Part shown: positions 13,199 through 45,525 of the stretch, in pieces
How positions within the stretch are numbered: the stretch's first letter is position 1
Layout: each line of letters begins with the position of its first letter
NCBI GenBank assembly: GCA_964017185.1
Contig: OZ024870.1
Location: 56,360,312 to 56,424,311, forward strand
Length of the DNA stretch: 64,000 bases
Direction: 5' to 3'
DNA from: Rugalucina vietnamica
Taxonomy: Eukaryota; Mollusca; Bivalvia; Lucinida; Lucinidae
The notes under the pieces: model-generated
Seen by the model: the letters and a program-made list of their open reading frames with translations, nothing else
What the model was told of the DNA's origin: nothing
Database searches by the model: none
Translations under genes and position numbers: made by a program

Positions 13199-13286
13199 GA
13201 AGATGAAGACTTAAATAACCACTATACAATTAAAAATAAAACTGAGATCCTTTAAGAGCAGTGAACATATAGATGAGAAAGGGGAT

Positions 13287-13330
13287 GGGCCATAAGATGG
13301 TTTCGGCTACTTAAGCCTCTTCAGTGACCC
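13287..13330 (-). ncRNA. Hammerhead ribozyme A1 (stem III degraded)
   Basis: On the minus strand: stem I strands GGGUCA and UGGCCC (with one G-U), core CUGAAGA, stem II GGCU...AGCC, core GAAA, cleavage triplet UUA. The tiny stem III (ACC...) no longer pairs well. Probably weak as a monomer; related minimal-stem HHRs are known to act as dimers. Confidence 0.7.
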
Positions 13331-13659
13331 TACAGATTTGGCAACATGAAGCCAAAGAGAATTACTGTAATTTTGCATCTTTCAACAAGATAGTCGATAA
13401 GACTATAGTAATCAAAATGGGGCCAAATATATTAAACGGTGGTTAGAAAATGAATCTTAACCAATAATAATTTTCTGATTTCTCAGAATACCCTCGCTGA
13501 TCTTAAAGGACCAAAAGGAAAATATAATCTGCACTATGGATGATGTACGGGGAGACTTTTTAGGGCCGCCACACGGCACAACACCAGCTGCAGTAATAGC
13601 AAATAAAAATAAAACTGAGATCCTTTAAGAGCAGTGAACATATAGATGAGAAAGGGGAT

Positions 13660-13703
13660 GGGCCATAAGATGGTTTCGGCTACTTAAGCCTCTTCAGTGA
13701 CCC
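13660..13703 (-). ncRNA. Hammerhead ribozyme A2 (stem III degraded)
   Basis: Identical to A1 and 373 bp away. Both conserved core strands are intact; stem III carries the same changes. Confidence 0.7.
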
Positions 13704-14231
13704 TACAGATTTGGCAACATGAAGCCAAAGAGAATTACTGTAATTTTGCATCTTTCAACAAGATAGTCGATAAGACTATAGTAATCAAAATGGGGCCAAA
13801 TATATTAAACGGTGGTTAGAAAATGAATCTTAACCAATAATAATTTTCTGATTTCTCAGAATACCCTCGCTGATCTCAAAGGACCAAAAGGAAAATATAA
13901 TCTGCACTATGGATGATGTACGGGGAGACTTTTTAGGGCCGCCACACGGCACAACACCAGCTGCAGTAATAGCAAATAAAAATAAAACTGAGACCCTTTA
14001 AGAGCAGTGAACATATAGATGAGAAAGGGGCTATTTACATCCCTTATGTGGACAAATTGAGCTCTGGCTCTTACAATTTTTAATTTCTAAACCCTTCAGA
14101 ATATAGCTCCAATGAATTGCCATTACCTATATTTTAACGAATTTGGTTCAAATATCTTCAAAATACATTTAACATGTGCATACTCAGTCTCAGATAGATG
14201 TCAAGTTATTCCATTATCAGGCCTAAGAAAT

Positions 14232-15315
14232 CACAGATACTTGGGGTTACTGTTTAGACTTTTTTCAAAAGCTCATACTTGTACTTTTTTTTCAAAACTT
14301 ACAATTATGTTTTTTGTTATCTTTTTGAGCTTTTCTGCAATAGTCGTGACCTTGCAAAATTAGAAAAAATGTCTAGAATCTATAGAAAGCAATCGAAATA
14401 CTGATATGCCATCCTGAATGTAGAGAAAAAACACAAGATAAACAACTTCGCTTTTCCAAATTCTCGACCGTCACTTTGAAAAGACAAACTGATTCACTAA
14501 TCCGTAACTTACAAGAATCTTATATATATCAGCATGTCCGGGAATCATTACGCTTCAAACGGACACAGAAAGTATTTAATTATTCCCTTGCATACCCACA
14601 AAATCGTCTGTTTAACAGCAGTTCTCCATCGCTAGCGCACTGAGGTGGCCACAGTGTTTACAGTAAAGGAAATCCCGTTTGCCATGTGACTGGCCCGCTT
14701 GTTTTCATTGGTCAATCAGGTATGACGCAACCAAATCCAAATTGCCATGTGACTGGACCGCTTGTTTTCATTGGTCAATCAAGTCTGACGCAATCAGAGG
14801 TCCTTCGGTTTGATCGCTGGTTACCCGTTTTCGCCGTTTTAAAACGTACGCCCGGAATCCAGTCACATCCATTATTTACTTCCGGCCACCTCAGTGCGGT
14901 AGCAATGAGAATCGTTGTTTAACAGCCGATTTTGTGGGTATGCAACGGAATATTTTAATGCTTTCTGTATCCGTTTGAAGCGTAATGATTCCCGGACATG
15001 CTGATATATATAAGATTCTTGTTAGTTACAGATTAGTGAAACAGTTTGTCTTTCCAAAGTGACGGTCGAGAATTTGGGACAATTTGGAAAAGCGAAGTTG
15101 TTTATCTTGTGTTTTGCTTTACATTAGTGATTGCTTATCAGTATTTCTAATGCTTTTTATGTATTCTAGATATGTTTTTCTAATTGTATAAGGTCAGGAC
15201 TAATGCAGAAAAGCTAAATGAAGAAGAAAAAAATACAAGTAGAAGTTGTTTTTTTTAAAAGTACAAGTATTAGCTTTTTGCAAAATCTAAACAGTAACCC
15301 CCAAGTATCTGTGTA
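14232..15315. mobile_element. Large foldback element with promoter-like core
   Basis: Two long arms, about 14232-14655 and 14885-15315, are inverted copies of each other. Examples are CACAGATACTTGGGG with its complement near 15300, TCTCGACCGTCACTTTG near 14462 with its complement near 15060, and CATGTCCGGGAATCATTACG with its complement near 14980. The 230-bp centre is unlike its AT-rich surroundings. It has a 64-bp tandem duplication containing CATTGGTCAATCA (inverted CCAAT) and an ETS-like ACTTCCGG. No protein. It may be a foldback transposon or a duplicated, divergently arranged promoter. Confidence 0.7.
14679..14805. repeat. 64-bp tandem duplication with CCAAT motifs
   Basis: GCCATGTGACTGG...CGCTTGTTTTCATTGG occurs twice with 64-bp spacing. 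Each copy has ATTGGTCAATCA followed by TGACGCAA. It sits at the centre of the foldback. Confidence 0.8.
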
Positions 15316-15367
15316 AGAAATGTACACGGAACAAATGGACCAACCGTTCACCAAGGGGGTGATTCAA

Positions 15368-15564
15368 ATGATGCTACATGTGCTGTCGTCTGAGTCATTT
15401 TTCTACCATTACATGCAAAAACATTCTGTTGTCCGAGTATATCGACAGCAGTATCATGACTCGACAGCAAAATCCCCAGTATCATATTTACGGCCGTCAG
15501 CCATATACTCGAACGACAGCAGGTTTTTGCATATAATGGTATACAAATGACAGCACAGGTATCA
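15368..15564. mobile_element. 200-bp foldback
   Basis: GATGCTACATGTGCTGTCG at the left and CGACAGCAGG / GACAGCACAGGTATCATC at the right are inverted. Inner arms such as ACCATTACATGCAAAAAC and GTTTTTGCATATAATGGT also pair. Short antiparallel ORFs on both strands are by-products of the symmetry. Confidence 0.65.
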
Positions 15565-15591
15565 TCATTGCTCACTCGGCAAGCGATATGT

Positions 15592-15692
15592 ATAAGTACT
15601 TATTTTTTAATTTATTTTCCCCACCTCATTTTTGGAGTGAGAATTTCTTTCTGATTGAAACATTTTCTGATCATTGCCTACTTTTACCTCAA
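15592..15692 (+). mobile_element. Decayed Penelope-like 3' end fragment
   Basis: TTCCCCACCTCATTTTTGG, then TTTCTGATTG and CTGATCATTGCCTACTTTTACC follow the terminal 100 bp of the Penelope-like 3' end with many substitutions. Confidence 0.5.
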
Positions 15693-15779
15693 AGCTTTCT
15701 TGCAGCGGGTAATGCTTGATTTACTGTAGAAACATTTTTTGAACACTGAAACCTTCAATTCTCACTAAGAGAAAAAACA

Positions 15780-15900
15780 ACAGACTTGTAAGAATTAATT
15801 TCTTGTAATGTGTCATTCTATACCGTGATGTTTTACCCCAAGGGACGGTGTCTATATCTTACTGACTACTCTTTTGTCATGATTTATGTCTTCAATCGGT
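15780..15900. repeat. Arm of inverted pair with 8.65-8.76 kb
   Basis: AATTAATTTCTTGTAATGTG, GGGACGGTGTCTATATC and TTACTGACTACTC are the reverse complement of sequence at 8650-8760. Either a dispersed repeat or a local inversion trace. Confidence 0.55.
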
Positions 15901-16185
15901 ACAGCGTTCGCAATCTTTTTGTTTTATCGAATAAATAGTCTTACAAAAGGCAATGTCTTTAACTATAGATACTTCTTCAAGATTTTACGTGCGTGTACAG
16001 TTTTCATTATATCCCAACCGAGATGCCAGGCTAGAAACGATATTATATGTAGATATTTGATGTCATAAATATGGTTGCAAGTTCGTGGTTTTCAAGCAAG
16101 AGCCTTTCGTTTGGCATCTGCATCAAAGCAGGTGCGATATCAATGTCAGAAAAAGCCAGTTCATCTACTTTTACTTTTGATATAA

Positions 16186-16300
16186 AGTGTTTGTTTGTTT
16201 GTTTGAATTACTTTATGTCCCAGTCAATAGTTATGGTCATGTCGGGACGCTGCCTCAATTTAATGGGACTTGTACCCAAAATAACTCGGATGCCATGATG
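16186..16300 (-). repeat. SINE tail, CAAA-ended
   Basis: The minus strand reads GGGTACAAGTCCCAT, then GTCCCGACATGACCATA, TTGACTGGGAC and an (CAAA)n tail. These match the 3' half of the SINE-like copies at 43.2 and 44.7 kb. Confidence 0.65.
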
Positions 16301-16311
16301 CCATATATATA

Positions 16312-17242
16312 CACATGGGAATAAGTTAGGGAACACTTTTATCCCTTGGGGAAAGATTGGAAAATCCATTTTCCTTTTTTCTGGCGATACTGAATTTTTT
16401 ATCACATATATTTCATTCCTTCGCCTAGCTACAGACCAATTTATGGAAATTCACAACATTTTGCCTTTGTGCTACGGAGAATACAATATGCCATATGCGA
16501 AAAACTCCACTTTTACTGAATACAAGTTTGCCTTTTTGCTTCTGCAGTCCGCAAAACTCAATTTTTGAAAGCAAAACAGGAATAAAATGTTGAATCTGAT
16601 CGTTATGAATGAATAAACTACTTCGGACCTAAAACTTTATGCTTCATCTCCAACCAACTAATCATACAAAATCAACAGTTTGCATTGATTTCTATGGAAA
16701 GGAAAATTCTTGGACATTTTGCAAATAAAGCCGTAAAAGAATAATTCCGCTAAGAGACTATAACCAGAACGTACATGCTTTGATCCCTAAAGGGTCATTT
16801 CGAATATCTGGCCCAACATTTACAACCAGCAAAATGTATACCCAAAGAACAAAACGGGGACATGAAACTTATCCCCGGAAAAGTATGGGCCTACCGCCGA
16901 CAGTCGGTCAGAAAATTAAGAATTTATGATCAAAGTTCCGCAAGCAAAGTCTCAGCTTTATGCTTACGAAAAATTACGACAACGTGAGTTCAAATAATGA
17001 ACTTATCGCAAAGACTAGCAGTGCGTTTCTTAAATTTAGCAACAATTTTCTGAATCAAAGATGGCCGCACTCCGCTGCAGTTTATGTTTGACGCTAACCA
17101 TTTTCACATAGAAGCAACTTTGGGGACTACAGATTCTGACAAATTGTCAAAACATTGTTCATAATGTTCACAAATAAGGATATATACAGTCCAAAGTCGG
17201 TAGTCACATAATTACAGGTGTTCCCTAACTTATTTTCATGTG
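16312..17242. mobile_element. Non-autonomous Tc1/mariner-like TIR element
   Basis: 25-bp inverted ends (16312-16336 and 17218-17242) share ATAAGTTAGGGAACAC with two mismatches elsewhere. Both are flanked by TATATATA runs, consistent with TA insertion. The 931-bp interior has no transposase. It lies directly before the start of duplication unit 1. Confidence 0.7.
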
Positions 17243-17587
17243 TATATATACTGAGGAGTATCATTTGTTTAAGGAAGTTGTTTTCTAACAATTTGGGATT
17301 GGGATTGTGTTTATCTTGATCATGATTTCATTTCTAGGAGCGCTACGTCTTAAACATAATGAGGCAATAATGTAAATCTGGAGACAAATTGTGAGATAAT
17401 TACTATTAAGTAGAGAAAAATAGACTTCGGGAGGGAAACGGTTGGAATTAGCTTAATTCAGTCATATAGACAGTCCCAAATAGCACCATTTAGCAATTTA
17501 GCAATAATGTTTATTAAATAATAGTAATAATAAAAACAACTGATTTCTTTTAATTTAGAGCAGTGAAAACATAAACGAGAAAGGGGA

Positions 17588-17632
17588 TGAGCCATACTGT
17601 GGTTCCGGCTACCAGCCTCGTCAGTGACCGTA
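17588..17632 (-). ncRNA. Hammerhead ribozyme B1 (core damaged)
   Basis: CUGACGA is intact, but the second core strand reads GGAA in place of GAAA. Stem II GGCU/AGCC still pairs. Likely inactive. Confidence 0.6.
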
Positions 17633-17960
17633 TAGATCCGGCAACATGGAGCCAGAGAACATAACTGCAGTTTAGCAAAATTTAACCAGGCAGAAAATAC
17701 ACAGGCGAGTTGTTCCAAATAGTGTCAAACGATTATTAATAATTATTGTTTCGAAAAATGTACTTATACTCACCTGGTAATCTGATTCCTCAGAACATCG
17801 TCGCTGATATCAGGGAAGTAAAATATAATCTGCACTATGGATGATGTACGGGGGACGTTTTAGGGTCTCGGGACGATACAACATCAGCTGCAGTAATAGC
17901 AAATAGAAATTAAAACTGAGATCCCTTAACAGCAATGCAGACATTAATGAGGAAGGAGAT

Positions 17961-18004
17961 GGGCCATACCGCGGTTTCGGCTACTCAAGTCTCGTCAGTG
18001 ACCC
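17961..18004 (-). ncRNA. Hammerhead ribozyme B2 (intact core)
   Basis: Minus strand: stem I GGGUCA with UGGCCC; CUGACGA; stem II GACU/AGCC with one A-C mismatch; GAAA; stem III ACC/GGU closed by GC; cleavage after GUA. Type I topology with the very short stem III typical of ribozymes in Penelope-like elements and animal retrozymes. Confidence 0.8.
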
Positions 18005-18170
18005 TATAAATCTACATGGAACCAGAAAATAATACTGCAATTTTTCAAATAACTTGACAGTGAATTAACAGATGGGTAGTTTCAAATATAGAGTCAAACG
18101 ATTTAAACGCATCGGGTAAAATAAAAATAATTGTTAGATCCTTAGGAAGCAGTATTCAAAGCGAGAAGAT

Positions 18171-18216
18171 GGGCCATATTGTACAATTTTGGGTGATGAA
18201 CCTTCATCAGTGACCC
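18171..18216 (-). ncRNA. Hammerhead ribozyme B3 (degenerate)
   Basis: CUGAUGA and stem I are present and stem III is longer (AUUGUACAAU), but the GAAA strand reads AAAA. Probably inactive. Confidence 0.5.
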
Positions 18217-18319
18217 TTTACAAAACAAATATTTTTGCTGCAATTCCAAGACTATTTTGACACTATTTTCATATAAGTTGGGCATTCTACTGTTTTATCC
18301 ATTGGTTGCATTTGACGTA

Positions 18320-18599
18320 CATCACGAAAACATGTCCGTGTAATGTATACCCCCTTGAACCCCACTTTTATATAGCAAAACTGGGGTATGCAGGGGTAAA
18401 CCTATTTTCCTTATTTTTGCTCCAAAACATAAATTGTGGGTACTCGTTAGAACCGCCTCGGCGAGGCGGTTCTAACGTGTATCCACTATCTATGTTTTGA
18501 GCAAAAATAAGGAAAAGTATCAAAAATTTTCAGCTGAAAATGTTTAGTTCTTAAACCTCAAAAAATCTCTGTATATTACATGGACAAGTTATCGTAATG
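18320..18599 (+). mobile_element. Hairpin MITE, copy 5 (best preserved)
   Basis: CATCACGAAAACATGTCCG and TTATCGTAATG form imperfect terminal inverted repeats. The first palindrome is built on ATACCCCC...GGGGTATGCAGGGG. The long hairpin, about 115 bp including its TTATTTTTGCTC shoulders, has tip CCGCCTCGGCGAGGCGG. Short ORFs through it are by-products. Confidence 0.85.
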
Positions 18600-18694
18600 G
18601 TTACAGAATAAACAAAATCCAGAAATGAGAATTAGGATTCCAGCGTGTCGCGTATAAATCTGGTTCGCTAGGTAAACTTTAAGGAGTGTCATGA

Positions 18695-18814
18695 AAAGTA
18701 CAAGTAGGCAAAGATCAGGAAAAGGCGCAATCAGAAAAAGACTCCCACTCCAAAAACCAAGGTGGGAAAAAACCAAACTAGCAATCAGGTACTTATACCA
18801 TGAAAACATTTCGT
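18695..18814 (-). mobile_element. Penelope-like 3' end fragment
   Basis: On the plus strand it starts GTACAAGTAGGCAAAGATCA and runs to CCATGAAAACATTTCG, the complement of the last 120 bp of the element. High similarity to 43.5 and 52.88 kb. Confidence 0.75.
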
Positions 18815-19312
18815 AAGATGAAAGATTCGCAAAATATTTAACGCTCAAATGCTCAAATGTATCTGCAGACAATCGAATGATTTGATGAGAAATGGAGCAT
18901 CAAAATAACCTTACTAACTGTCATAAAGCAACCACTCTGCCAATATTAGTATCAGGGCTGTCTTCACCACTTAGGCCTAATATATTACGTACTGCAATGT
19001 GAAGGTGATTTGCAAGACTGAGTGTACGCTGAAATGCAATTTTGATGAAATGTTTGCATGGTTGATATACGGATGCGTTCACATGGTGAAATTCCCTAAT
19101 TTGGCAAATCACGTTTTCATGTCAAGCAATGAGCAATATTAGTAAAAGCAAAGGATCGTTTTCACTTAGCTACAAAATAATGAGGTACTTGTTCGATTTT
19201 AGATTGGAGATCAGTTCCGTAATTACATTTCTATTAAATTTTATCTTATACCAGAAATATTGCTATAGCTGCCACAACATGAAATCAGCAAGGCGCCAGC
19301 GAAATATCAATT

Positions 19313-19487
19313 GAGCCTTCACATGAGAAAACCAACAATTTTTGTAACTGACCAGGTCTGACATAAATCAGCCTGTGCAGTCACAGGAGCAGGTTTGAAG
19401 CTTGAAATTTTGGATATAAGTGAAAGAGGAATTGCACTATCCATGTTTTCGCATATGCAGATTGCTCATTTTCCGATGCGGCGGCTC
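19313..19487 (-). mobile_element. GAGCC-type MITE with AATT duplication and empty site
   Basis: Starts GAGCC, ends GGCTC, flanked by AATT (19309-19312 and 19488-19491). The equivalent place in unit 2 (about 42.72-42.73 kb) has a single AATT with no element, confirming the boundaries and that insertion followed the duplication. Confidence 0.85.
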
Positions 19488-20197
19488 AATTATGGCATCA
19501 GTTTTCAATTTCAGCAATATTCGTAAAATTGAAGTTATCATTGTAATTGGTTTCGTATTCTGTTGCAAATTACATTAAATTTCATGTCTACATCTGTTAA
19601 TATAAATCAAATCGAGTGGAATATCTGTGCCAACTGATTTCGAATTGGTAAAGGCATTTACTCAGTATAACAATAACCCAAAATGATAACTTATATAGTC
19701 CAATCCATTTGATAAAGGACATTTCAAGTAATTTAAGTAAATTAATTTTATATAGAAACCAACAAACATTTTGAGCAAGCTGTTCTAGGAAAAACTTTAA
19801 AACAACTGGAAATAACCGAGAATTAACACGGTAAGAGAGGCGATAGAAAAAGACATTCATTGTACATGTATATTCAAAAACATATGGCAATGAAGAGAAA
19901 AGCCTCTTTGCTGGACATGATAAAAACAGAAATTGTCTGGCAATGATACTAAATACAGAAACAAACACATGGGCTCAAAACGAAACATGGCAGTAAGGTG
20001 GAAGAAAAGGTAGAAAATTGTGACATAAAATGACTTCTGATTTCTTGAATGCATTTGACTGGGAAACAAACAGCCTTATACAACGCCCACCAAGAGCTTA
20101 TTGCAGTTACAGTCAACTGGGTCAGACCACGTGTGGCAGACTTAGGAAAAAATGCCGCCTTAGAATGTGTACTTTTCACTTGTTGCTCGGATATTAA

Positions 20198-20418
20198 CCC
20201 ATATTTGACGAATGGATTCTCCCATCATTATCAATTGGGCGAGTCCACTTTCATTTTTAGGGGCCGCAGGTGTGATTATAAAATTTTATTCCATTTTTCG
20301 ATGAAATTTCTGTAAGCAAACAGAATAGCCCCAGATGGGACGCCGCGTTCTGCGGCGTCCCATCTGGGGCTATTCTGTTTGCCTAAGTCCCATAAAAGGG
20401 ACGTCAGGCTTAAATGAG
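20198..20418 (+). mobile_element. TTAA-flanked MITE (piggyBac-like), copy 1
   Basis: Flanked by TTAA (20194-20197 and 20419-20422). Unit 2 at 44.13 kb has one TTAA in otherwise matching sequence, an empty site. Ends CCCATATTTGACG and, inverted, CTCATTTAAGCCTGACG. Its centre (20316-20382) is a near-perfect 67-bp palindrome with arms beginning GCAAACAGAATAGCCCCAG. The TTAA target suggests mobilisation by a piggyBac-type transposase; none is present. Confidence 0.8.
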
Positions 20419-20428
20419 TTAACCTATA

Positions 20429-20912
20429 GAGGATATTCAAGTTTTTGGAGTGAATATGAGTTTTATTTCATTGAGTGAAGTGAAAAAAAAATTATATTTC
20501 ATGAGTGCCGAAGGCACGAATGAAATATATAATTTTTCACTTCACGAGATGAAATAAAACTCATATTCACGACAAAAACTTGAATTTTCTTTTTATTATA
20601 TTGCATGTAGTCATTGTAACGTTGCGCGCTAAAACATATGACGTCAAAATCTTAAATGACGTCATTACGTCACGTCATTACGTCGCTATTGTGTGTGAAC
20701 GTTCATTGCGTCAACAATAGCACAGATTATAAAATTTATTTATGTATTAATTAGAAATGAAACGGTGGAATCGTAATTTGTGTATTCCCAAATCTTATAT
20801 TTTCACATGTGAAAATATAACTTTTTTATATTTTCACATGTGAAAATATAACTTTTTCAAATATTGGTTATATTTAATACATATTTCTCTATATTTCATC
20901 ACTTGCCATATA
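20429..20912. mobile_element. Second insertion with 160-bp foldback
   Basis: Absent from unit 2, where CCTATA joins TCTTTATC directly. It holds an inverted repeat at 20432-20591 (arms include ATTCAAGTTTTTG, TGAATATGAGTTTTATTTCA and GTGAAGTGAAAA) and then tandem TATTTTCACATGTGAAAATA palindromes near 20805-20850. Possible TA-type target duplication. Non-coding. Confidence 0.55.
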
Positions 20913-22264: not shown

Positions 22265-22544
22265 GGAGCTTCTTGTCTGTTGCTTGGCCCACCGGGGTCC
22301 AACTGGTGTTTTTCTTTTGCTCGGGAGTTAGTAGGTTATTCGGCGCCCAGGAATCTCCATCGTTGGGCAGCTTACTCAATCAGTGAGTCCTGGTTTTTGA
22401 TTCATCAGGATGTTTATCATGATTTATTTGTTTGTTCTTGATGATTCATTGACTAGTTAGAGATTCACCACGAGGACCGAAGAACTAACTAAATGTTATG
22501 AACCACTGCAGAAGCTGAGGGTGAGGTTAGGTACCTGTAAAACC
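22265..22544 (+). mobile_element. Penelope-like 3' region fragment
   Basis: From GGAGCTTCTTGTCTGTTGC to GGTACCTGTAAAACC it follows the sequence just after the RT stop codon in the 53-kb element. The remaining 3' end is replaced by 276 bp of unrelated sequence, after which the GAAGCTGAGGGTGAGG block starts again at 22821. Confidence 0.75.
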
Positions 22545-22820
22545 AGTTATTTTATAACTGACCGTACCAAGGCGGTATTGCTGTTCTGGTTCACAATTTC
22601 AAAGTTATTCCAATTACGAGTTTCATGTTGCATGGCTTTGTGACCACCCGAATATAATGGCTGTTCACTTAGCCCTCTGCATTTACTTGTTCTGTCCAAG
22701 CTAGCACTGTGACCACCTAATACCTTCAATAGCTGCTCACTCTGCTCTCCGTTATTCATGTTAAACGTTGGTATCTATGTTTAGTATTTTCTTAATATGA
22801 TTTCTTATTTCTTGTTTACA

Positions 22821-25390: not shown

Positions 25391-25479
25391 AAGTGTGACA
25401 AGTATACCAGAGAGGTAGACAAAATAAACAGAAAACAAGAACATGAATCACAGCATAACCGTCTTTGAACGGTCAGTAA

Positions 25480-25935: not shown

Positions 25936-26841
25936 TGGTCATGTCAGAAGTGTGTGACGCCTTATCCTATCTCCTGGATAATATTTATATTAGATTTGGG
26001 ACCAAGTTATACAGACAAATTGTTGGAATTCCGATGGGTACAAATTGCGGACCTCTCGTAGCTGATTTATTTTTATACTGCTTCGAAAGAGATTTCATGG
26101 ATTCTCTGAACCATGATAACCAAACTGATGTTATCGAGGCTTTTAATTCTACTTCTAGATACCTCGATGATCTTTTGAACATTGACAACCCTTATTTTCA
26201 GGTATGGTCAATCAAATTTATGCACCTGAACTACAGTTGAACAAAGCCAATACCGAAGCCCCCTTTTTAGATCTACATCTTTCTGTTTCAAATGGATTTG
26301 TTTCTTCTAAAATTTATGATAAGCGCGATGACTTTGATTTTTGATATAGTAAATTTTCCGTTTTTGGATGGTGATGTTCCTCGTCGTGCTTCTTATGGTG
26401 TATACATTTCGCAACTTATTAGGTTTGCTAGAGTCTGCAATCATGTTACAGACTTCAACGCTCCAAATAAATGTTTCACTTCTCCAACAGGGCTATCGGT
26501 ATCATGAAATTCGGAAAACCTTTTATAAATTTTATCGTAGACACTATGAAATGATTTCCAAATATAATGTTGGGTTAAAGACGCTTTTAAATGAGGGCCT
26601 TTCGGAACCAGAATTTTATGGTGACTTGGTTTACAAATTTTAGAAACTTATAGGAAGTAATGATTTTTCTTTTCAGTTTAGAAAAATCATAACACGTTAC
26701 AGACGTATAGGTTATAACTTGAATGTTATGCGACAGTCTGCATGCTTAGTTTTTAACCCAATTATTGCTTATAACTATGCTGCCTTCTTTAATTGCACGC
26801 CGGTGGGTCAGGCGTCAGACTCTGTGATGGCCCCGACCTAA
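25936..26841 (+). pseudogene. Penelope-like reverse transcriptase, truncated and frameshifted
   Basis: Encodes the second half of the RT domain seen in the 53.5-55.9 kb element: a GIPMGTN segment, the catalytic YLDD box at about residues 76-79 of the first fragment, and the downstream FPFLDGDVPRRASYG block. The 5' part, including the first catalytic Asp motif, is missing. Against the sibling, a base is lost just after the DNPYF codons (about 26200), there is a small in-frame deletion near 26250, an extra base near 26340, a deletion near 26475, and an in-frame TAG at about 26641. It ends near ...CTPVG and a TAA at 26839. No GIY-YIG endonuclease follows. Clearly dead; dispersed 5'-truncated copies fit the Penelope-like lifestyle. 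Confidence 0.8.
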
Positions 26842-27228
26842 AGCTATTCATTTTAGTTGGTTGGGGCCGGAGCTTCTTGTCTGTTGCTTGGCCCACCGGG
26901 GTCCAACTGATGTTTTTCTTTTGCTCCGGAGTTAGTAAGTTATTCGGCGCCCAGGGATCTCCATCGTCGAGCAGCTTACTGAATCTGTGAGTCCTGGTTT
27001 TTGATTCATCAGGATGTTTATCTTGATTTATTTGTTTGTTCTTGATGATTCGTTGACTAGTTAGAGATTCATCACGAGGACCGAAGAACTAGCTAAATGT
27101 TATGAACCACTGCAGAAGCTGAGGGTGAGGTTATGGCCATGTAAATATCGATTTAAGCCCGCCAGTAATTGTGAGTTACTGATTGTTCCAAGTCGATACT
27201 TCTGTGGTGGTTCTTTTTGTTTTATTTG
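26842..27228 (+). mobile_element. 3' untranslated region of the 25.9-kb Penelope-like copy
   Basis: Runs from the TAA through GGAGCTTCTTGTCTGTTGC, GATTCATCAGGATG and GAAGCTGAGGGTGAGG to GTGGTGGTTCTTTTTG, then changes to unrelated sequence at about 27228. The terminal 200 bp found in other copies is absent. Confidence 0.75.
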
Positions 27229-29830: not shown

Positions 29831-29839
29831 GCCTTGATA

Positions 29840-30062
29840 AAAAGTAAAACTGAGTTCATTTAAGAGCAGTGAAAACATTTACATGTACATGTATACGAAA
29901 TGGGATGGTTCATACCACGGTTTCGGCTACTCAAGCCTCACCAGTGACCCTATAAACCAGGCAACACGCAACCAGAGAAATTGCTGCAATTTGTCAAATT
30001 TCAACTGAACAGTCAATAAGTAGACGGGTAAATTCAACTACAGTCAAACGATTTAAATTGTT
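29840..30062 (-). mobile_element. Retrozyme single copy C
   Basis: AAAACTGAGTTCATTTAAG through the ribozyme and CAACTGAACAGTCAATAAGT match array units, but less than one full unit is present. Unit 2 does not carry it at the equivalent place. Confidence 0.65.
29907..29950 (-). ncRNA. Hammerhead ribozyme C (core damaged)
   Basis: Stems II (GGCU/AGCC) and III (ACC/GGU) and GAAA are intact, but the first core strand is CUGGUGA, changing a conserved A. Stem I has a mismatch. Probably inactive. Confidence 0.6.
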
Positions 30063-30356
30063 CAGATAAATGTATCTAAACTGGTTATACAGTTTAGCGG
30101 TCTCATTCGTTTGCAATATTGTTTTCTGTCATGTCTGTGCCATTTCCATAAATTTATTTACAAAACAACGTCTAGCAGTGAACAAATACTTCTAATGCTA
30201 AAAGCAAACCCTTTCTATGGAGGAGTAATAGTAAAACTGAGTGCTATTAGAAATAACAGGGCAAAACGTGTCATAAAAAGCTTTCAGCAAGCCAATTTAA
30301 ATAATAATAAATCTGGCGTAATTATTGTTTCTTTTGGAATACAGTACGAACGTTAA

Positions 30357-33427: not shown

Positions 33428-33707
33428 CATCAGGATAACATGTCCGTGAAATAAATCCCCCTTATACCCCACTTTTATATAGTAAAACTGGGGTATGCAG
33501 GGGTATACATATTTTTTTTTTATTTTTGCTCCAAAACATAGATTGTGGATACTCGTTAAAACCGCCTAGTCGAGGCGGTTCTAACGTGTACCCACAATCT
33601 CTGTTTTGAGCAAAAATGAGAAAAACATCAAGAAATTTCTACTGAAAAATGTAATTTTATACAACTTTAAAAATCTCTGTAAATTGCATGGGCAAGTTTT
33701 CGTAATG
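33428..33707 (+). mobile_element. Hairpin MITE, copy 6
   Basis: CATCAGGATAACATGTCCG to GTTTTCGTAATG. Both palindromes are present; hairpin tip CCGCCTAGTCGAGGCGG. It marks the left edge of the 6.9-kb block absent from unit 2. Confidence 0.8.
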
Positions 33708-33713
33708 TGATAT

Positions 33714-36041: not shown

Positions 36042-36390
36042 AAACCAGATCGTGGATATCCTAGGTCATCTTGAGCACTAAAGGCTGGTGAGCTCTATGA
36101 AAGGGTCTGTTGTCTTATTTTCATAAACTTTTTTGTGGAATTCCTGAAAACAAACTGTCGGAAATAACCACATAGCGAGAAAATACTGGATCCATTCTGA
36201 CTCCTTAAAATTTTGCTCATTCTCATTTGTAAAATATATAGAATCTGAAACATACTCAGACGATTTTCCAGTTCCTGGTCATTGCTACGGTAATTCTTAT
36301 CTTTTCTCACAAGAAGATCAAATGACAGACTTCGCTTTGTTTCCAGCCCAAGGTTATGATACTTTTTTTTCATGCCCATCAAATACTGGA
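36042..36390. other. Unassigned, non-coding
   Basis: A 95-codon minus-strand frame exists but resembles nothing known and has no visible promoter, splice or repeat support. Confidence 0.35.
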
Positions 36391-36392
36391 AT

Positions 36393-36560
36393 AGGAAGCC
36401 TACCCTGGCAGAGTGATAAAGCCAATCAGCTTGTAAACCAGGGATCGTGGGATGGATGCCAGGCTTCTCAGCCTCTCAAATGAGACTTGATATATAGGGA
36501 GCTTGTCTCTGTATGACCTCAGCTGTTGAGTGGGATTTATAACCAACCGACAATACTGCA
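36393..36560 (+). repeat. tRNA-Thr-like SINE, diverged copy
   Basis: GGAAGCCTACCCTGGCAGAG is followed by the CTTGTAAACCAGGG anticodon-loop-like segment, GCCAGGCTTCTC, and the TGTATGACCTCAGCTGTTG tail block. This is the same design as the SINE at 63.14 kb, with a mutated B box. Confidence 0.65.
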
Positions 36561-37685
36561 ATGGCTAAAATCAGTGGAAATTTCTGTCTTAAATCATAAA
36601 AGCCATTCATTTTGCTCACTTTATTGTTTAAATTACAACAAATGTGAAATATACAGGGCAGGAGTTTGTTGATGTTTTCTTTCTCCAATATATATGTCTG
36701 TCACATCTTTCCATTCAATGTCAGATTCTGAAAAAATAATCACATGCAATCTAATTATAAATGAATACATGCATCTACACCTATTCTGGTGGCCGGGTAT
36801 AAAAGCTTTGACCCTGTTGCACATGCCAACCCTGTCAGCCTTAAAACGTGAAAATGATATTTTGTCACATTATAACTAACATTAACGGGATATTCTAAAA
36901 TATTGATACATGGAATGAAGTAAACACATTTTGTTTTGCGAAAAAATATTCATGTATCACAGTGACCAGCTAAGATACAATAAGATATGAAATATCCTTT
37001 ACGTAAGTAGTTTTGGCAATGCATTGCGGTTAATGAAAGTGTCTGGCCCAGTAAAGCATGCATGGCATGGTCAAAGCTCTCATGCCCGACCTATTTTGAT
37101 TAAACATTTTTAAACGCTGCGAGAAAATCGGTCTTCAGGGTTTCTGACCAGGTCTTATAGAATTAGGCCTTTGCAGTATTAGAAGATGGCTTCAAATTTG
37201 GCATACTCCACTTTTCCAGATTAGGAAAGCTGTTATTTTCAAAATGGCAAATCTGTCTTTTTAGATGGTTAGCTATAGAAAAAAAATGTTGTTAACCTTA
37301 ATATCTGTCCCTACATTGCCTGAGACGATAAAAGGTAGATATAAAGCAACAAACAAGATCAATTACCAGTCCTCCAATGCTGAACCTCTTCTCTAGCACC
37401 ATTCGCAGTGACCCTGTTATGGCTGCAACTCATTTTGGCTGTAATTATAATAGAGTGAGATTTATGCACAAAAATCTGACAAATCTTGTGACACATCAGT
37501 TATCGAGAGACAACCAATGCAACTGAGAACAACTAATGTACATAGATATTACTGTGTGGGAACAACTAACCATAGAATAAGCATTCAAACCCATGGTTTA
37601 AGTTGTTCCTAGACAGTTATGTACTCCCCAATGTTGCGAATTGATTTCGCCTGCATTGATTATTCTGTCTTGTTACGAAATAATT
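36561..37685. other. Unassigned, non-coding
   Basis: No gene or known repeat recognised. Part of the 6.9-kb block missing from unit 2. Confidence 0.35.
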
Positions 37686-37687
37686 TG

Positions 37688-37905
37688 CTTTTATACCTGG
37701 AATAGTGGTAGAGCCTCGGACTCCATATCAATGGTTCCTGGGTTAAATCCCCACAGGTGTCGTGTTGTGTCCTTGCACAAGACACATTAACTCCCTACAG
37801 TACTGGTTAAACCAAGAGCGTTTGCTCTATCCCGACATGGCTGAAAAATTATTAACTGGGACGTTAAGCCTCAATAACAATATTTCTGTCAAGATGGGTT
37901 TGCTG
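37688..37905 (+). repeat. tRNA-derived SINE (TGTGTCCTTGCACAAGACAC family)
   Basis: A-box-like TAGTGGTAGAGCCTCGG and B-box-like TGGGTTAAATCCCCAC are followed by GTGTTGTGTCCTTGCACAAG, GACACATTAACTCCCTACAG, TCCCGACATGGCTGAAAAAT and a GACGTTAAGCCTCAA tail. The same family is on the minus strand at 46.4 kb. Confidence 0.75.
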
Positions 37906-38247
37906 CTCTGCATGTTATTATTTCTCTACATATTCAATGGAACAATTATTAAATTCAATAGTTGTTAATTTTACTGTTTTTAAATTTTATTCACCTTAGC
38001 TGCCTCATTGTACAATTATGCTGCAACTGTTCAGTTGATTCATCTGGCTTGCTATTCACCTCCTCACCATTGTACGGGAAATTTCTGAAGTAAAAATAGC
38101 TCACTGAACAGAAAAATAAATAATATATGGCTCCAACACATTCAACTTGTATTCATATTAAAACCTGGCTGTGTCACATTCTAAAGATATACTTTGGATT
38201 CAGTTTAATTTCATCCTTTTCAAAATTCAAGACAATTTCAGCTCATA

Positions 38248-38511
38248 CATTACAAAATAATATACAGAGAATTTTTTTCAGCATCAAAATTTGAAAAAAA
38301 TTCATTAGAAAAAATTGATAATTTTAATATGTTTGTTCAAAACATTGTGGGTACACGTTAGAACCACCTCCCCAAGTTGGTTCTAATGAGTACCCACAAT
38401 CTGTTTTGGAATGAAAATAAGAAAAATAGGTATATCCCTGCATACCCCAGTTTTACTATATAAAAGTGGGGTTTAAGCGGGTATACATTTCACAGACATG
38501 TTTTCCAGATG
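38248..38511 (-). mobile_element. Hairpin MITE, copy 7
   Basis: CATTACAAAATAATATACAG on the left, long hairpin around GTGGGTACACGTTAGAACC (tip altered) at about 38345-38395, and the CATACCCCAG...AAGTGGGGT palindrome, ending at the complement of the CATC..GAAAACATGTC start. Confidence 0.75.
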
Positions 38512-38629
38512 TATGGGGAGAGTTAATCAGTAGGTGGGGCGAAAACACGAGAACCCCAAGAAAAATAACACATGGCACACCCACAGGCATTACTTGGCTT
38601 GTCTCACATGTGCCCCACACCAGACATGT

Positions 38630-38712
38630 CAATGAGGTAATTGAATGATTAAGCCCGGTGACTGTAATGAAATATCAGTGCTCTTAACCACTAGGCCTCG
38701 GGAGCCGCTGTT
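38630..38712 (-). repeat. tRNA-like SINE head fragment
   Basis: The minus strand reads GGCTCCCGAGGCCTAGTGG then TTAAGAGCACTGA, an A-box-like tRNA start. The B box is degenerate. Confidence 0.4.
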
Positions 38713-38914
38713 AGAAATTTTGTACCCATTCTACATACATGTTCTAGTTCAAACTATAAAATCAATATTGAACTGCAACATTTTATGCAACAGCATAATC
38801 GATAACTCTATAGAAACAGGGAGCTCCAGGTACTATTACCCATACTGTCCAAACAACATTTGTCAGAAACTGTGTTTTCAAAATCACCTTTTTCTGAAAC
38901 ACCCCTACCCGTTG

Positions 38915-39155
38915 GGGCCTGAAGAAATAGATGGGCTGCTTGTGCCTCCAGACAAAGCTTATTCGCTACTGACTGGCCGCCTTGATTACTCGTTAACCAC
39001 TCCGGTCTGAGCCTGCCAAGGAAAAGTGGTTTCAAGTCTTACCAGCCATACATATAAACCTTACTGGCTTAGTTGGGTGGTTATATTCTGAGGCGTGTCC
39101 TGACATGACCCTGGCTGTTGACTGTGATGTTAAGCATCAGTTCAAACAATTCTGT
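38915..39155 (+). repeat. SINE-like repeat (GGGCTGCTTG family)
   Basis: AATAGATGGGCTGCTTGTGC, CTCCAGACAAAGCTTATTC, a block with GTGGTTTCAAGTC, and the tail CCTGACATGACCCTGGCTGT ... TTAAGCATCAGTTCAAACAA. Copies at 43.0, 44.6 and 46.7 kb share head and tail. No obvious tRNA cloverleaf. Confidence 0.65.
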
Positions 39156-39599
39156 CCAGATATCAAGGTACCTGCACATAATCCTCGCGAGAAGGTGCTG
39201 CAGTATATATAGAAAGTATATATAGAAAATGTAGTTTCCTAAAGACAGTGTATGGACAGTAGATCATAGACTGAAATTGTACAGTTTGAGTTTCCCGTAG
39301 AAATCCCATCACTCTCACTCTTGGGAGTAAATAATCATAAGCACTTAACACACGCCGTGTCTAATTTCACTCGATACATTGCATTGATCAGCAATTAGCC
39401 ATTCGTAAAGATGAAATTTCCATTGAATAACGTACGCGAAAATACGTGACAAAAGACTTTTGAAAAGTACTCAGCTCATACACACACCGTAATTTGCGCA
39501 AAATACTGTAACAAATCAATGACATACCATTCAATTTCCAAATATCCAACAGTCTGTGTTTTGATGACCATTCAAATAGGGGAAATAATCCGTTTTCAA

Positions 39600-39775
39600 C
39601 TGGTTTCTAATTTGTATCGATTGTCAGACCGCAAATGGCGGCTCATTGGGAAATCCATATCCGGTTTCCGTTTCATTGATTCGGCAAACGCGTGGCTGCC
39701 GGTAACCAGTATACAGGCGCGTGCCGAAAGTCATGTGACGTGCGCAGAAGTTCGAAAACAAGACCGTCGTACATC
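39600..39775. promoter_or_regulatory. GC-richer, promoter-like patch
   Basis: Contains CAAATGGCGGCTCATTGG, ATCCGGTTTCC and GTCATGTGACGTGCGC: CCAAT-like, ETS-like and E-box/CRE-like motifs in one 150-bp patch unlike its AT-rich surroundings. No supported gene follows. Confidence 0.25.
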
Positions 39776-39779
39776 CTTA

Positions 39780-39816
39780 AGCTCACCTTGGGAGCCTAAC
39801 GGCTCAGGTGAGCTAA
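39780..39816 (+). repeat. Solo terminal hairpin of the AGCTCACCTG element
   Basis: AGCTCACCTTGGGAGCC and GGCTCAGGTGAGCT form the same terminal hairpin that ends copy F2 at 62.6 kb, with no element body attached. Confidence 0.6.
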
Positions 39817-39837
39817 AAAAGAACAAACCTCAAGGTA

Positions 39838-40184
39838 ACTGGCGGTCCTAAAAAATCTCTCCGTACATCATCCATAGTGCAGGTTATATTTTCGTTTTGG
39901 TCCTTTGAGATTAGCGGGGATATTCTGAGAAATCAGAAATTTATTATCGGTTAAAAATTATTTTCTAACCAATATTTAACATATTTGGTCCCATTTTTAT
40001 AATTATTATTATACTAGTCTTTGTATCGACTACCCTGTTGAAAGTTGCAAAATTTCAGTAATTCTCTTTGGCTCTAAAGGGTCACTGACGAGACTTTAAT
40101 AGTCGAAACCGCGGTATGGCCCATCCACTTTCTCATTTATGTGTTCGCTGCTCTTAAAGGATCTCAGTTTTAATTTTTATTAGA
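39838..40184 (+). mobile_element. Retrozyme copy D (plus strand)
   Basis: Almost one full unit, inverted relative to the other loci: GGCGGTCCTAAAAAATCTC, CATCATCCATAGTGCAGG, the hammerhead, then GATCTCAGTTTTAATTTTTA. It lies inside the block absent from unit 2. Confidence 0.8.
40079..40122 (+). ncRNA. Hammerhead ribozyme D (best preserved)
   Basis: Stem I GGGUCA (40079-40084) with UGGCCC (40117-40122, one G-U); core CUGACGA (40085-40091); stem II GACU/AGUC, fully paired, loop UUAAU; core GAA plus A (40105-40108); stem III ACC/GGU with a two-base GC loop; predicted cleavage after A40116 (GUA). Every invariant hammerhead position I can check is present. Confidence 0.85.
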
Positions 40185-40221
40185 ATGGTCAGTAGTGAAT
40201 TACTGTGTGGGCTCTAAAAGT

Positions 40222-40312
40222 ATCCGCTACCTTTGTTTTGGTACAAAAATAAGAAAAAACTGTATACTCCTCAACACCGCAGTTTTCTGTTTCAAAGTGG
40301 GTATACATTTAA
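40222..40312 (-). mobile_element. Hairpin MITE remnant
   Basis: AAAAATAAGAAAAAACTGTA, ACACCGCAGTTTT and AAAGTGGGTATACATTT match one shoulder and the first palindrome of the MITE. It sits at the right edge of the block missing from unit 2. Confidence 0.45.
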
Positions 40313-40319
40313 TGGCAAT

Positions 40320-41545
40320 TACACTTATCTAACTTTTTTACATCGTAACAACCTCACCTTTCATGACTATACCCATTTAGCCTTAGTTCCAACGCAAAAC
40401 CACTCCCATGAACATCAAAAGGGACCATTTTGATCCATTGCATGATTCATTACATAGTGAAATCATGATTCAAATCGCTGGAAGAAAAGTTCATGTATGA
40501 GATAATGGACATGAGCACGCATCTGAGTCATTCATAGCATAAGCAAATTCTTAGAATAAACTTAAGATTTGCGTGTCTTGTTATTTCAATACAAATTTAC
40601 ATTCAACGAAAATGTACTGGCAAGGCAAAACAAATCATTTTACCACATTTTATCCACAACAAGATCTGTCGAGCAAATTTTACATATCGACAATTTACTT
40701 GTGAATTATCGGTACAGAAACCTCACAGTCCTTGAAGAATTGGTACATTGTACAAATGTGACATATTCATACCATTTTTTCACATGTGAAATGTGATATC
40801 TGCGGGTCAACGAGGATCTCTCTATACACACATATGGAAATACCTTAATATAATTAATATTTTACTTCTGGCCTCTTCAGGTTCACTGTGGCTCATAGCT
40901 CCAGGAACATCACAAAAATGAAATTCATGTCTTAAAATAATTCGCCCAGACTGGCCAAAAAGAAAAAAAAAACAAGATAACTGCAGATTTAGAATGGGAA
41001 TGGTTCCCTGATCATTGCCTACGTTTACCTTCTTGAATCATGGTGATGATGATCAAACGTCTTTTTATTCAATTTATGCATTAACATGATACATTTATAA
41101 AACGGACAGACGTGCACTTGCTGTTTGAGTAAATACAGGCGGCAATATTTAAGTGTTCCTTTTAGAACGTTTCATGCAATCAACGAATCCATTAGTTGTC
41201 GCGGTATTCTGAAGCGTTGCATTTTAGAATATTGTTCACTGAAGATGTTTCATTAATGGACTTATATACATTTAAATTTGATGGAGTGCATACGTGTACG
41301 TGGTGCCACAATAAAGATTTGAATGACGACTCAAGCTTGTTCTACAAACCGCCATTTAGACGCAATATATTATTACATAAAGCGATAAATGCAATCAAAT
41401 TATTTCATGTCTCATGTCCAATTGTCCATCGCAAATTGTCATGCCTTAAAAAACGTTGCAACATAGTCATAACCTTTTTCAAACAATCAAAGATATTATT
41501 TAGACAGAACCTGCACAGCTGATCAGCGCCTTCACTGATCAGTGA
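40320..41545. other. Non-coding end of unit 1
   Basis: Matches 58.1-60.1 kb (for example CATTTTAGAATATTGTTCAC near 41220 and 59810). A 40-bp remnant of the Penelope-like tip lies at about 40990-41032. No gene is visible; a 108-codon frame at 41.2-41.5 kb is not preserved in unit 2. Confidence 0.5.
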
Positions 41546-41880
41546 ATTTCTTGCATTCGTTTCCAACAGAAACTAACATAGTATCGAGGAGTATCATTTG
41601 TTTACGAATGCTGTTTTCTAACAGTATGGGATTGGTGTTTTGTTTTTGTTGTTCCTGATTTCGTTTCCAGAATGAAACAAAAACGTCAATCTGGAGACAA
41701 AACGTGAGATAATTATAGAAAAATAGGCTTCGGGAGAGAATCCTCTGAAATTAACTTCATTTAGTCTTAAACTTATAGGCAGTCTCAGTAATTTTCATCA
41801 AATTGGCAATAATGTTAATCAAATAGAGATTACATGTGTAACTGATTTCTTTATGAGCAGTGAAAACATTAAAAGGTGAT

Positions 41881-41924
41881 GGGCCATACCGCGATTTCGG
41901 CTACTCAAGCCTCGTCAGTGACCC
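41881..41924 (-). ncRNA. Hammerhead ribozyme E1 (intact core)
   Basis: Minus strand: stem I GGGUCA/UGGCCC, CUGACGA, stem II GGCU/AGCC fully paired with loop UGAGU, GAAA, stem III AUC/GGU with one U-G, cleavage after GUA. Confidence 0.82.
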
Positions 41925-42255
41925 TGTAGATCGGGCAACATGGGGCCAAAGAAAATTACTGCAATTTTGCAAATTTCGACAAGGCAGATAACACACAGAC
42001 GGTTATTCAAATTAGAGTCAAACGATCCAAATTGTTTAGAAAAATGTATCCAAAACTGATGATAATTTTCTGATTTCTCAGAATATCATCGCTGATCTCA
42101 ATGGACTTAAGGGAAAATATAAGCTGCACTATGAATGATGTACCGGTAATAAAATTTAGCGCCACCAACCGGCACAACAGCAGCTGCAGTAATAACTAAT
42201 AAAATTAAAACTAATTACTTTTAAGAGCAGTGCAATCATAAATGAGGAAGGGAAT

Positions 42256-42302
42256 GGGTCATACAGCGGTTTCGGCTACTCAAGCCTCGTCAGTCGGTGA
42301 CC
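42256..42302 (-). ncRNA. Hammerhead ribozyme E2 (4-nt insertion in stem I)
   Basis: CUGACGA, stem II and GAAA are intact, but four bases (CCGA) separate stem I from the core, and stem III has a C-U mismatch. Activity is doubtful. Confidence 0.6.
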
Positions 42303-43017
42303 ATATAAATCTATCAACATTTAGCCAGAGAAAAGAACTGCAATTTTTAACTGAACAGTCAATAAATAGACAACACAACATATTTTGATATTAGAGCTGC
42401 CTTTACCACTTTGACATCAATTAATACGTGTTACACTAAAGCTGATTTGCCAGTGTATGTTGAGTGCAGTTTTGGTGAAATGTTTGCATGGTTGATTTAC
42501 GGATTCGTCAACATAGTGTTGTTTTCCCTAATTTGAAAATGCAGTGAGCATCATATAAGTAAAAGCAGAGGATCGTTTTGACAAAACTACAAAGTAATGA
42601 GTTACTTGTTTGATTTTAGATTTGAGATCAATTCCGTAATTACATTTCTATTACAGTTTTATCTTTATAACAGAAATATTGCCATTACTGTCATAAAATG
42701 AAATCAGCAAGGCGCCAGTGAATATCAATTATAGGATCAGTTTTCAATTTTAGCAATATTCAGTAAAATTGAAGTTATCATGGTAATTTGTTTCTTATTC
42801 CGCTGCAAATTACATCCATGTCTACATCTGTTAAATTAACCCCAATCGATGAGAGTGTCTTCCAAAAACGCTTTGTTCCGAACGAATTTTCAAATTGGTA
42901 AATACAAGTTTGCTAAGAAATAATGGCTCAAATGGATAGCTTATAGTCCGATCCATATGACATAGGATATACCATGTGTTCGGTTATAGTTATATAGAAA
43001 CAACAAATATGTGCAGC

Positions 43018-45300: not shown

Positions 45301-45301
45301 A

Positions 45302-45520: not shown

Positions 45521-45524
45521 ACAT

Positions 45525-45525
<1 letters not shown>

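What the first reader, a model, noticed from the sequence alone, without database searches (positions are those of the whole stretch)
13232..42375. Five-locus family of ~373-bp retrozymes carrying type I hammerhead ribozymes
Seen directly: at least nine copies of one motif set (CUGANGA, a 4-bp stem II, GAAA, a tiny stem III, and a stem I of GGGUCA/UGGCCC) at conserved positions in units with a 372-375 bp period. Known: small non-autonomous retroelements with tandem hammerheads (retrozymes) exist in plants and animals, and minimal-stem-III hammerheads occur in Penelope-like elements. Inference: this is a molluscan retrozyme family likely to make small circular RNAs. It is a self-cleaving RNA system in otherwise gene-free sequence, and the family may be undescribed in this species.
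Basis: partly seen in the sequence, partly recalled or inferred. Interest (0 to 1): 0.88.

Follow-up and report, generated by a model that had tools for sequence, protein, structure and literature searches.

The report
Retrozyme family with dimeric hammerhead ribozymes
The window holds scattered copies of a small gene-less jumping element that carries a self-cutting RNA, a kind already known from mussels, and the surrounding genome keeps a readable record of how such elements may copy themselves from little RNA circles.

Summary
Nine hammerhead-bearing copies of a ~373-bp unit lie at 13,227-42,372; two are intact (40,079-40,122 + and 41,881-41,924 -). Loci 2 and 5 are one insertion copied by an old segmental duplication, so the window has four clear independent insertions plus a remnant. 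The family is genome-wide: 6,421 and 7,227 exact matches to two hammerhead patterns, none to reversed controls. It fits the metazoan non-LTR retrozymes of Cervera and de la Pena 2020: a new member of a known kind. Of 110 sampled arrays, 90 end at one U-rich site; their 5' ends are scattered, without pile-up at the cleavage site; 22 of 26 testable arrays are monophyletic, as if each came from one template. This is the footprint expected of target-primed reverse transcription running round an RNA circle. Helix III is an 8-nt palindrome in 125 of 148 complete sites, so the ribozyme should act as a dimer. Variants present before insertion are scarce in the ribozyme and, more strongly, in a second segment (unit positions 1-~107) of unknown function: the one unexpected result. 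RNA, cleavage and circles were not tested; a molluscan host is inference.

The parts
13227..14031 (-). Locus 1: 2.16 units of 373 bp, element 3' end at 13,227
13287..13330 (-). Hammerhead 1a; helix III broken (ACCATCTT)
13660..13703 (-). Hammerhead 1b; same broken helix III
13493..13599 (-). Second constrained segment (unit positions ~1-107), locus 1 unit x; end point approximate
13866..13972 (-). Second constrained segment (unit positions ~1-107), locus 1 unit y; end point approximate
17519..18110 (-). Locus 2: about 1.5 units, old copy in segmental duplicate A
17589..17630 (-). Hammerhead 2a (A13G, shortened loop II)
17961..18004 (-). Hammerhead 2b (palindromic helix III; one stem II mismatch)
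18136..18244 (-). Diverged remnant 2c with hammerhead at 18,171-18,216 (helix III ATTGTACAAT, G12 lost)
29837..30090 (-). Locus 3: 5'-truncated single unit, hammerhead at 29,907-29,950 with A6 mutated
39839..40181 (+). Locus 4: single unit, unit positions 28 to 3' end
40079..40122 (+). Intact type I hammerhead, helix III ACCGCGGT
41829..42372 (-). Locus 5: about 1.5 units, duplicate of locus 2 in segmental copy B
41881..41924 (-). Intact type I hammerhead 5a, helix III ATCGCGGT
42256..42303 (-). Hammerhead 5b with 4-nt insertion before the core

Best explanation
This is a dispersed, high-copy, non-coding non-LTR retrozyme family. Transcripts of tandem units are cut by a type I hammerhead that works mainly as a dimer, two units pairing through a palindromic 8-nt helix III. 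Monomers are ligated into circles. A reverse transcriptase supplied by another element starts at one internal U-rich site (UUUUAUUUUUAUU) primed by the target DNA and runs round the circle a variable number of times, leaving an array with a fixed 3' end, a random 5' end and near-identical units that then decay neutrally. Shown here: sequence, fixed 3' end, scattered 5' ends, one template per array in most arrays tested, palindrome, scarcity of pre-insertion variants in the ribozyme. Inferred: cleavage, ligation, circles, the enzyme, and transcription.
For: Genome-wide: 6,421 exact hammerhead matches, 0 to the reversed pattern. 90 of 110 arrays end at profile positions 365-373; none of the other 20 ends within 8 nt of the cleavage site (310); 5' starts within 10 nt of the cleavage site 6 of 90 against 5.1 expected, within 20 nt 8 against 9.9; 87 of 90 arrays are longer than a cleaved linear monomer primed at that site could give, the longest 2,320 nt. 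Share of rare variants held in common: 56.5% within arrays (96 pairs), 2.5% between arrays (3,000 pairs). 22 of 26 arrays with two or more near-complete units monophyletic, at most 2 in each of 50 label shuffles. Shared versus private rare variants, 31 arrays not chosen by hammerhead sequence: core+stems 2/21, rest 105/161, p = 0.0028. Strict palindrome in 125 of 148 sites; pair 305-306 is A-T or G-C in 62 of 68 distinct sequences; pairing of the two inner helix III pairs exceeds all 2,000 shuffles. Dimer minimum-energy fold of the locus-4 and the commonest 44-mer is exactly the double hammerhead (-35.1, -36.4 kcal/mol), while the monomer's is not a hammerhead.
Against: No RNA, cleavage or circle data. 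Rfam gives no hammerhead above threshold. Filtering before insertion is not unique to the ribozyme: unit positions 1-107 are filtered as strongly (3 shared/40 private). The ribozyme result is weaker in other cuts: core alone p = 0.085; positions 302-316 in all fetched loci p = 0.077; in the 18 arrays covering 1-107 twice 1/6, p = 0.12 at the 0.1 threshold and 0.013 at 0.2; in 22 such arrays 7/13, p = 0.056. Both locus-1 units share a broken helix III and three L011 units share ACCATAGT, so some templates had an imperfect helix III. Covariation rests largely on two subfamilies. In 5 of 96 within-array pairs the partner ranks worse than a quarter of unrelated units (four in L091, one in L034), and 4 of 26 arrays are not monophyletic. 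Exact adjacent target-site duplications barely exceed control (9 nt or more: 6 of 90 against 2-3, three of the 6 being T-rich). For locus 5a another dimer fold is lower, and locus 1 folds poorly as a dimer. The circular fold is clearly stable in one of three units (z -2.9, -1.5, +0.6).
Confidence: 0.8

Rival explanations
1. The arrays grew at the DNA level, by unequal exchange or slippage in a single inserted unit; the ribozyme and circles play no part in array formation.
For: Units within an array are near-identical, as local duplication would also give. Both locus-1 units share a broken helix III.
Against: In the multi-unit arrays listed, consecutive units join tail to head at profile positions ~373 to 1, and the partial first unit begins anywhere in the unit, which a 5'-truncated monomer cannot supply. 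The one old multi-unit array examined, L091, is star-like, not homogenised: four full units differ pairwise by 22-31 nt.
Confidence: 0.1
2. Linear multimeric read-through transcripts, not circles, are the templates.
For: Gives multi-unit arrays as well; no direct evidence of circles in this genome.
Against: Daughter arrays would inherit different source units, yet units group by array (22 of 26) and in the six full units of L033 adjacent units are no closer than distant ones. Active ribozymes would cut such RNAs, but 5' ends do not pile up at the cleavage site.
Confidence: 0.15
3. The hammerhead is a relic: the family spreads as an ordinary SINE-like element and the ribozyme has no role.
For: Seven of nine window copies look damaged; positions 1-107 are as constrained as the ribozyme; core alone p = 0.085.
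Against: Core variants are as frequent per site as elsewhere after insertion but none was seen before it (0 shared, 6 private); helix II and inner helix III pairs covary.
Confidence: 0.07

Closest known systems
Non-LTR retrozymes of metazoans, Mytilus galloprovincialis family (Cervera and de la Pena 2020, PMC7229834; parts 1-4 of 6 of the text read)
   Same: Type I hammerhead, ~350-390-bp low-GC units in short tandem arrays, thousands of copies (there ~5,000 hammerheads), no LTRs.
   Different: There a cloned mussel repeat cleaved on its own (kobs ~0.1/min) and dimer dependence was reported for the axolotl; here the palindromic helix III points to dimers. A fixed U-rich 3' end and a second constrained segment were not described in the parts read.
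Newt/axolotl satellite-type retrozymes (PMC7229834, part 3)
   Same: Weak helix III with palindromic tetraloop (Amex1) or two pairs plus tetraloop (Amex2), dimer-dependent cleavage.
   Different: Other host and unit; here two pairs and a palindromic tetraloop occur together.
Minimal type I hammerheads of Penelope-like elements (passages of the review PMC7761336; introduction of PMC7229834)
   Same: Type I, minimal helix III, thought to act as dimers.
   Different: Lie in PLE pseudo-LTRs and usually lack the non-conserved helix III nucleotides; here in non-coding 373-bp units.
Plant LTR retrozymes (PMC4918200: search listing only; features from PMC7229834)
   Same: Circular RNA retroelement principle.
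   Different: Type III hammerhead, LTRs, 600-800 nt.

Membership tests
Metazoan non-LTR retrozyme | Type I hammerhead in the units | tested here: met
   2 of 9 window copies intact; 107 of 148 complete 44-nt sites intact by a similar rule, out of 180 units examined; L050-L099 were chosen by hammerhead pattern
Metazoan non-LTR retrozyme | Short tandem units of about 150-450 bp, dimers to multimers | tested here: met
   373-bp unit; arrays 37-2,320 nt; of 52 pattern-sampled C1 arrays with complete 3' end 16 exceed one unit
Metazoan non-LTR retrozyme | Low GC (<45-50%) | tested here: met
   0.38-0.39 in three units
Metazoan non-LTR retrozyme | No LTRs, PBS or PPT; non-coding | tested here: inconclusive
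   Longest stop-to-stop frame 55 aa in one doubled unit; PBS and PPT not searched
Metazoan non-LTR retrozyme | Target-site duplications, when present, longer than 4 bp | tested here: inconclusive
   13 bp L027, 12 bp L021; overall barely above control; against uninserted Naiad sequence outcomes vary from overlap to deletion
Metazoan non-LTR retrozyme | Highly self-paired circular RNA | tested here: inconclusive
   z -2.9, -1.5, +0.6 in three units
Metazoan non-LTR retrozyme | Expressed as linear and circular unit-length RNA | not testable with these tools
   no RNA data
Metazoan non-LTR retrozyme | Self-cleavage in vitro | not testable with these tools
   bench test
Rfam hammerhead families | Match at or above gathering score | tested here: not met
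   none in window; best 15.4 of 48.5 bits on a slice
Penelope-like element hammerheads | Hammerhead lies in a PLE pseudo-LTR | not tested
   flanks were not searched systematically for PLE coding sequence
Plant LTR retrozyme | Type III hammerhead between LTRs | tested here: not met
   the open helix is I, not III; LTRs not searched for separately

The most novel reading that the evidence does not exclude
Each array is a fossil of one RNA circle, reverse-transcribed from a single fixed internal priming site. Two separate modules were required for that journey: a hammerhead that works as a palindrome-joined dimer, and a second segment of ~107 nt directly downstream of the priming site, perhaps a reverse-transcriptase recognition element or an internal promoter, not described for animal retrozymes in the parts of papers seen here.
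Probability: 0.5. Interest if true: 0.62.

Novelty: new member of a known kind. Interest (0 to 1): 0.45.

Why it matters
Animal retrozymes were shown to make RNA circles, but that the circle is the transposition template, where copying starts and which parts of the unit are needed stayed a proposal (PMC7229834 suggests a primed circle). A genome with thousands of copies lets these be tested from sequence: variants shared by all units of an array predate insertion, private ones follow it. That test supports the circle model, shows scarcity of ribozyme mutations before insertion, and points to a second functional segment that can be mutated at the bench.

Tried and rejected
Rfam at gathering score and at relaxed E-values did not find the hammerhead; treated as a model limit, not a refutation. 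The first shared/private test was biased, because L050-L099 had been fetched by hammerhead pattern; redone on L011-L049, where restricted versions on positions 302-316 were not significant (p = 0.077 in 45 arrays, 0.6 in 14). A sliding-window control then showed the ribozyme is not the only filtered region, which led. The nearest-neighbour unit test (of 114 units, 73 closest within their own array, 4 ties, 37 closer to another array) was set aside as unfair because of short overlaps and many comparisons; replaced. Dropped before counting: L016 (same flanks as L012), L055 and L056 (same place as L054), arrays at locus edges, units under 120 nt and rows under 280 nt. One search, a whole-window self-BLAST, missed the direct repeats and was replaced. 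One search printed its shuffle results and then stopped with an error; the rest was redone. No tRNA in 13,000-43,000, no convincing pol III boxes and no well supported covarying structure (4 of 20 predicted pairs with any double change) explain segment 1-107. The site matching locus 3 in segmental copy B is not a clean empty site. Two phage-like contigs with the same 25-nt hammerhead string share nothing else detected with the unit. Pfam finds nothing significant in the three RT-like frames. A genome-wide two-unit version of the shared/private test at G12 could not be run, because the server stayed busy. The species was not identified: 1.09 Gb in 47 contigs, of which C1-C14 and C17 were seen at 35-102 Mb; 2 of the 120 listed homologues of the neighbouring reverse transcriptase are named from Candidatus Thiodiazotropha bins, recalled as clam symbionts; a bivalve is inference.
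Full report
Observation. One 373-bp unit recurs at five places and a profile adds a diverged remnant beside locus 2. Nine copies carry a recognisable hammerhead. By a strict type I descriptor (helix I and II paired, at least two pairs of helix III, position 17 not G) two are intact and none appears in 20 shuffled windows. The other seven show core or stem damage by eye. Rfam does not call a hammerhead.

Correction. A chunked self-comparison of 12,500-44,000 against the window shows an old collinear duplication, about 17,253-41,502 against 41,586-60,067, most pieces 70-81% identical, with later insertions. Loci 2 and 5 sit at matching places with shared flanks, so they are one insertion. Independent insertions in the window are locus 1, locus 2/5, locus 3 and locus 4, plus the remnant 2c.

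Genome. The window is G000:C2:56,360,312-56,424,311 of a 1.09-Gb, 47-contig assembly. The unit search scored 40 of 3,568 first-look candidates, so copy numbers from it are lower bounds. The pattern GGGTCACTGANGAGRCTN{3,7}AGYCGAAA has 6,421 exact matches and its reversed control none; CGAAACCNNGGTATGGCCC has 7,227 and none. Of the roughly 100 rows listed, counted by eye, ten have a middle dinucleotide other than AT or GC.

Array anatomy. I fetched the 39 other scored loci and 48 consecutive pattern loci on C1. Of 110 arrays clear of locus edges, 90 end at profile positions 365-373 of 374, in CTCAGTTTTATTTTTATT or close variants; the other 20 end elsewhere, the nearest to the cleavage site (310) at 301. 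Among the 90, 5' starts are spread over the whole unit, 6 within 10 nt of the cleavage site against 5.1 expected; lengths run from 37 to 2,320 nt. So copying seems to start at one internal U-rich site and stop anywhere, passing the cleavage site freely. A linear RNA cut by the ribozyme and primed at that site could give at most ~64 nt; 87 of 90 exceed this by more than 15 nt.

One template per array. Rare variants are held in common in 56.5% of calls within arrays (96 pairs) and 2.5% between arrays (3,000 pairs); median divergence 1.6% against 13.1%; in 70 of 96 pairs no unrelated unit is closer, in 5 more than a quarter are. On a tree with the tested hammerhead columns masked, 22 of 26 arrays are monophyletic, at most 2 in each of 50 label shuffles. 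Three full units of L026 differ by 0-1 nt; six of L033 are star-like; four full units of the old array L091 differ by 22-31 nt, so they decayed independently (its first partial unit is ~20% off and may be a separate insertion).

Ribozyme. Of 180 units, 148 have a complete ungapped 44-nt site; helix III reads ACCATGGT in 83 and ACCGCGGT in 42; 125 of 148 are strict palindromes. Pair 305-306 would be loop in a monomer; it is G-C in 34 and A-T in 28 of 68 distinct sequences. Pairing in helix II and in the two inner helix III pairs exceeds all 2,000 column shuffles, while helix I and outer helix III vary too little to tell. Related lineages inflate such shuffles. Folding two 44-mers together gives exactly the double hammerhead for locus 4 and the commonest sequence; alone, the minimum-energy fold is not a hammerhead. 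For locus 5a a different dimer fold is lower, and locus 1 folds poorly. The dimeric hammerhead is known from newts and PLEs (cited in PMC7761336 passages); an invertebrate retrozyme resting on it would be a modest extension.

Selection before insertion. A variant present in all units of an array was probably in the template; a private one came later. In 31 arrays not chosen by hammerhead sequence, private rates are alike in core, stems and rest (0.018, 0.019, 0.019 per site), while shared rates are 0, 0.0026 and 0.0127; core+stems against rest p = 0.0028, core alone p = 0.085. Resampling 30 arrays keeps the difference below zero in 99.9% of draws. The control was informative: using the last two units of each array, the ribozyme has 2 shared to 17 private, unit positions 1-107 have 3 to 40, the neighbouring parts 74 to 55. 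Within the 18 arrays where both last units cover 1-107, that segment has 1 shared and 31 private while the middle and near parts have 42 and 46 (p = 1.2e-6); there the ribozyme alone is 1 to 6 (p = 0.12). Adding four arrays ascertained otherwise gives 7 to 44 for the segment (p = 7e-9) and 7 to 13 for the ribozyme (p = 0.056). Conservation across units agrees: 48-64% of positions at 97% identity in 1-132 and 48% in 265-308, against 14-20% in 133-264 and 25% in 309-352; that count weights sampled arrays unevenly. The motif GTACATCATCCATAGTGCAG is kept in loci 2 and 4, and with one change in 5. I found no well supported RNA structure, tRNA or clear pol III boxes in it. It could be a promoter or a site bound by the reverse transcriptase; I cannot tell which.

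Insertion sites. Four arrays (L019, L027, L033, L035) lie at the same place in the tail of a Naiad-like Penelope element whose uninserted copy is in the window at 53,195-53,200; junctions there range from a 1-nt gap to a 13-nt duplication. Elsewhere L042 shows a loss of about 20-27 nt and L096 an overlap of up to 16 nt. Such variable outcomes suit target-primed reverse transcription. The target reads CCGG^TTTTACATGG, so an A-rich primer could pair with the U-rich start site; inference. The enzyme that moves the family is unknown.

Known work. PMC7229834 (parts 1-4 of 6 read) describes mussel retrozymes with ~350-390-bp units, ~5,000 type I hammerheads, circRNAs in mussel tissues and RtcB circularisation in vitro, and proposes a primed circle as template. 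The present family meets the sequence features of that class that could be tested. Searches for 'retrozyme' (34 papers, 30 listed), for hammerhead with bivalve (3 papers), with other mollusc words (too broad to be useful) and with circular RNA and rolling circle (8 papers) showed, in the titles and abstract beginnings listed, no array-based test of this kind; I did not read those papers apart from the two named.

Noticed in passing
window 53,458-55,982 (-); second copy around 25,936-27,225 (+): Reverse-transcriptase frames of a Naiad-like Penelope element: an in-frame TGA at 55,422-55,424 gives Sec-D-Cys in a CxC-like motif, a frame change lies near 54,549, and SECIS_1 elements above Rfam threshold lie at its end (53,458-53,525 -, 26,816-26,883 +). 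The Naiad name, its CxC motif and clam Naiads with selenocysteine are recalled from Craig et al. 2021 (not held).
   Followed up: partly
window 17,253-41,502 and 41,586-60,067: Old collinear segmental duplication, most pieces 70-81% identical, with different later insertions.
   Followed up: partly
window 53,195-53,200 (+); L019, L027, L033, L035: Four retrozyme insertions at the same site of the Naiad tail.
   Followed up: partly
L034, L057, L090 (retrozyme profile positions ~199-205); L063 similar split: Naiad 3' ends abut retrozyme units split near one place with 4-7-nt overlaps: the two elements land repeatedly in each other. That the L063 insert is a Naiad was not checked.
   Followed up: partly
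window 13,287-13,330 and 13,660-13,703: Locus 1, whose units are over 99% alike, carries the same broken helix III (ACCATCTT) in both units, so its template seems to have had a defective ribozyme; perhaps helped in trans or altered after insertion.
   Followed up: no
L001 12,596-12,620; L002 1,959-1,983: Two phage-like IMG/VR contigs hold a 25-nt hammerhead string matching this family's pattern, with weaker hammerhead-like hits nearby, and nothing else detected in common.
   Followed up: partly
window 61,218-62,528: A 455-bp unit repeated 2.9 times, unrelated to the retrozyme in the comparisons made.
   Followed up: no
window 12,560-12,839, 18,313-18,599, 33,428-33,707 and others: A dispersed ~280-bp repeat with an inner inverted repeat; one copy underlies a sub-threshold MIR821 match.
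   Followed up: no
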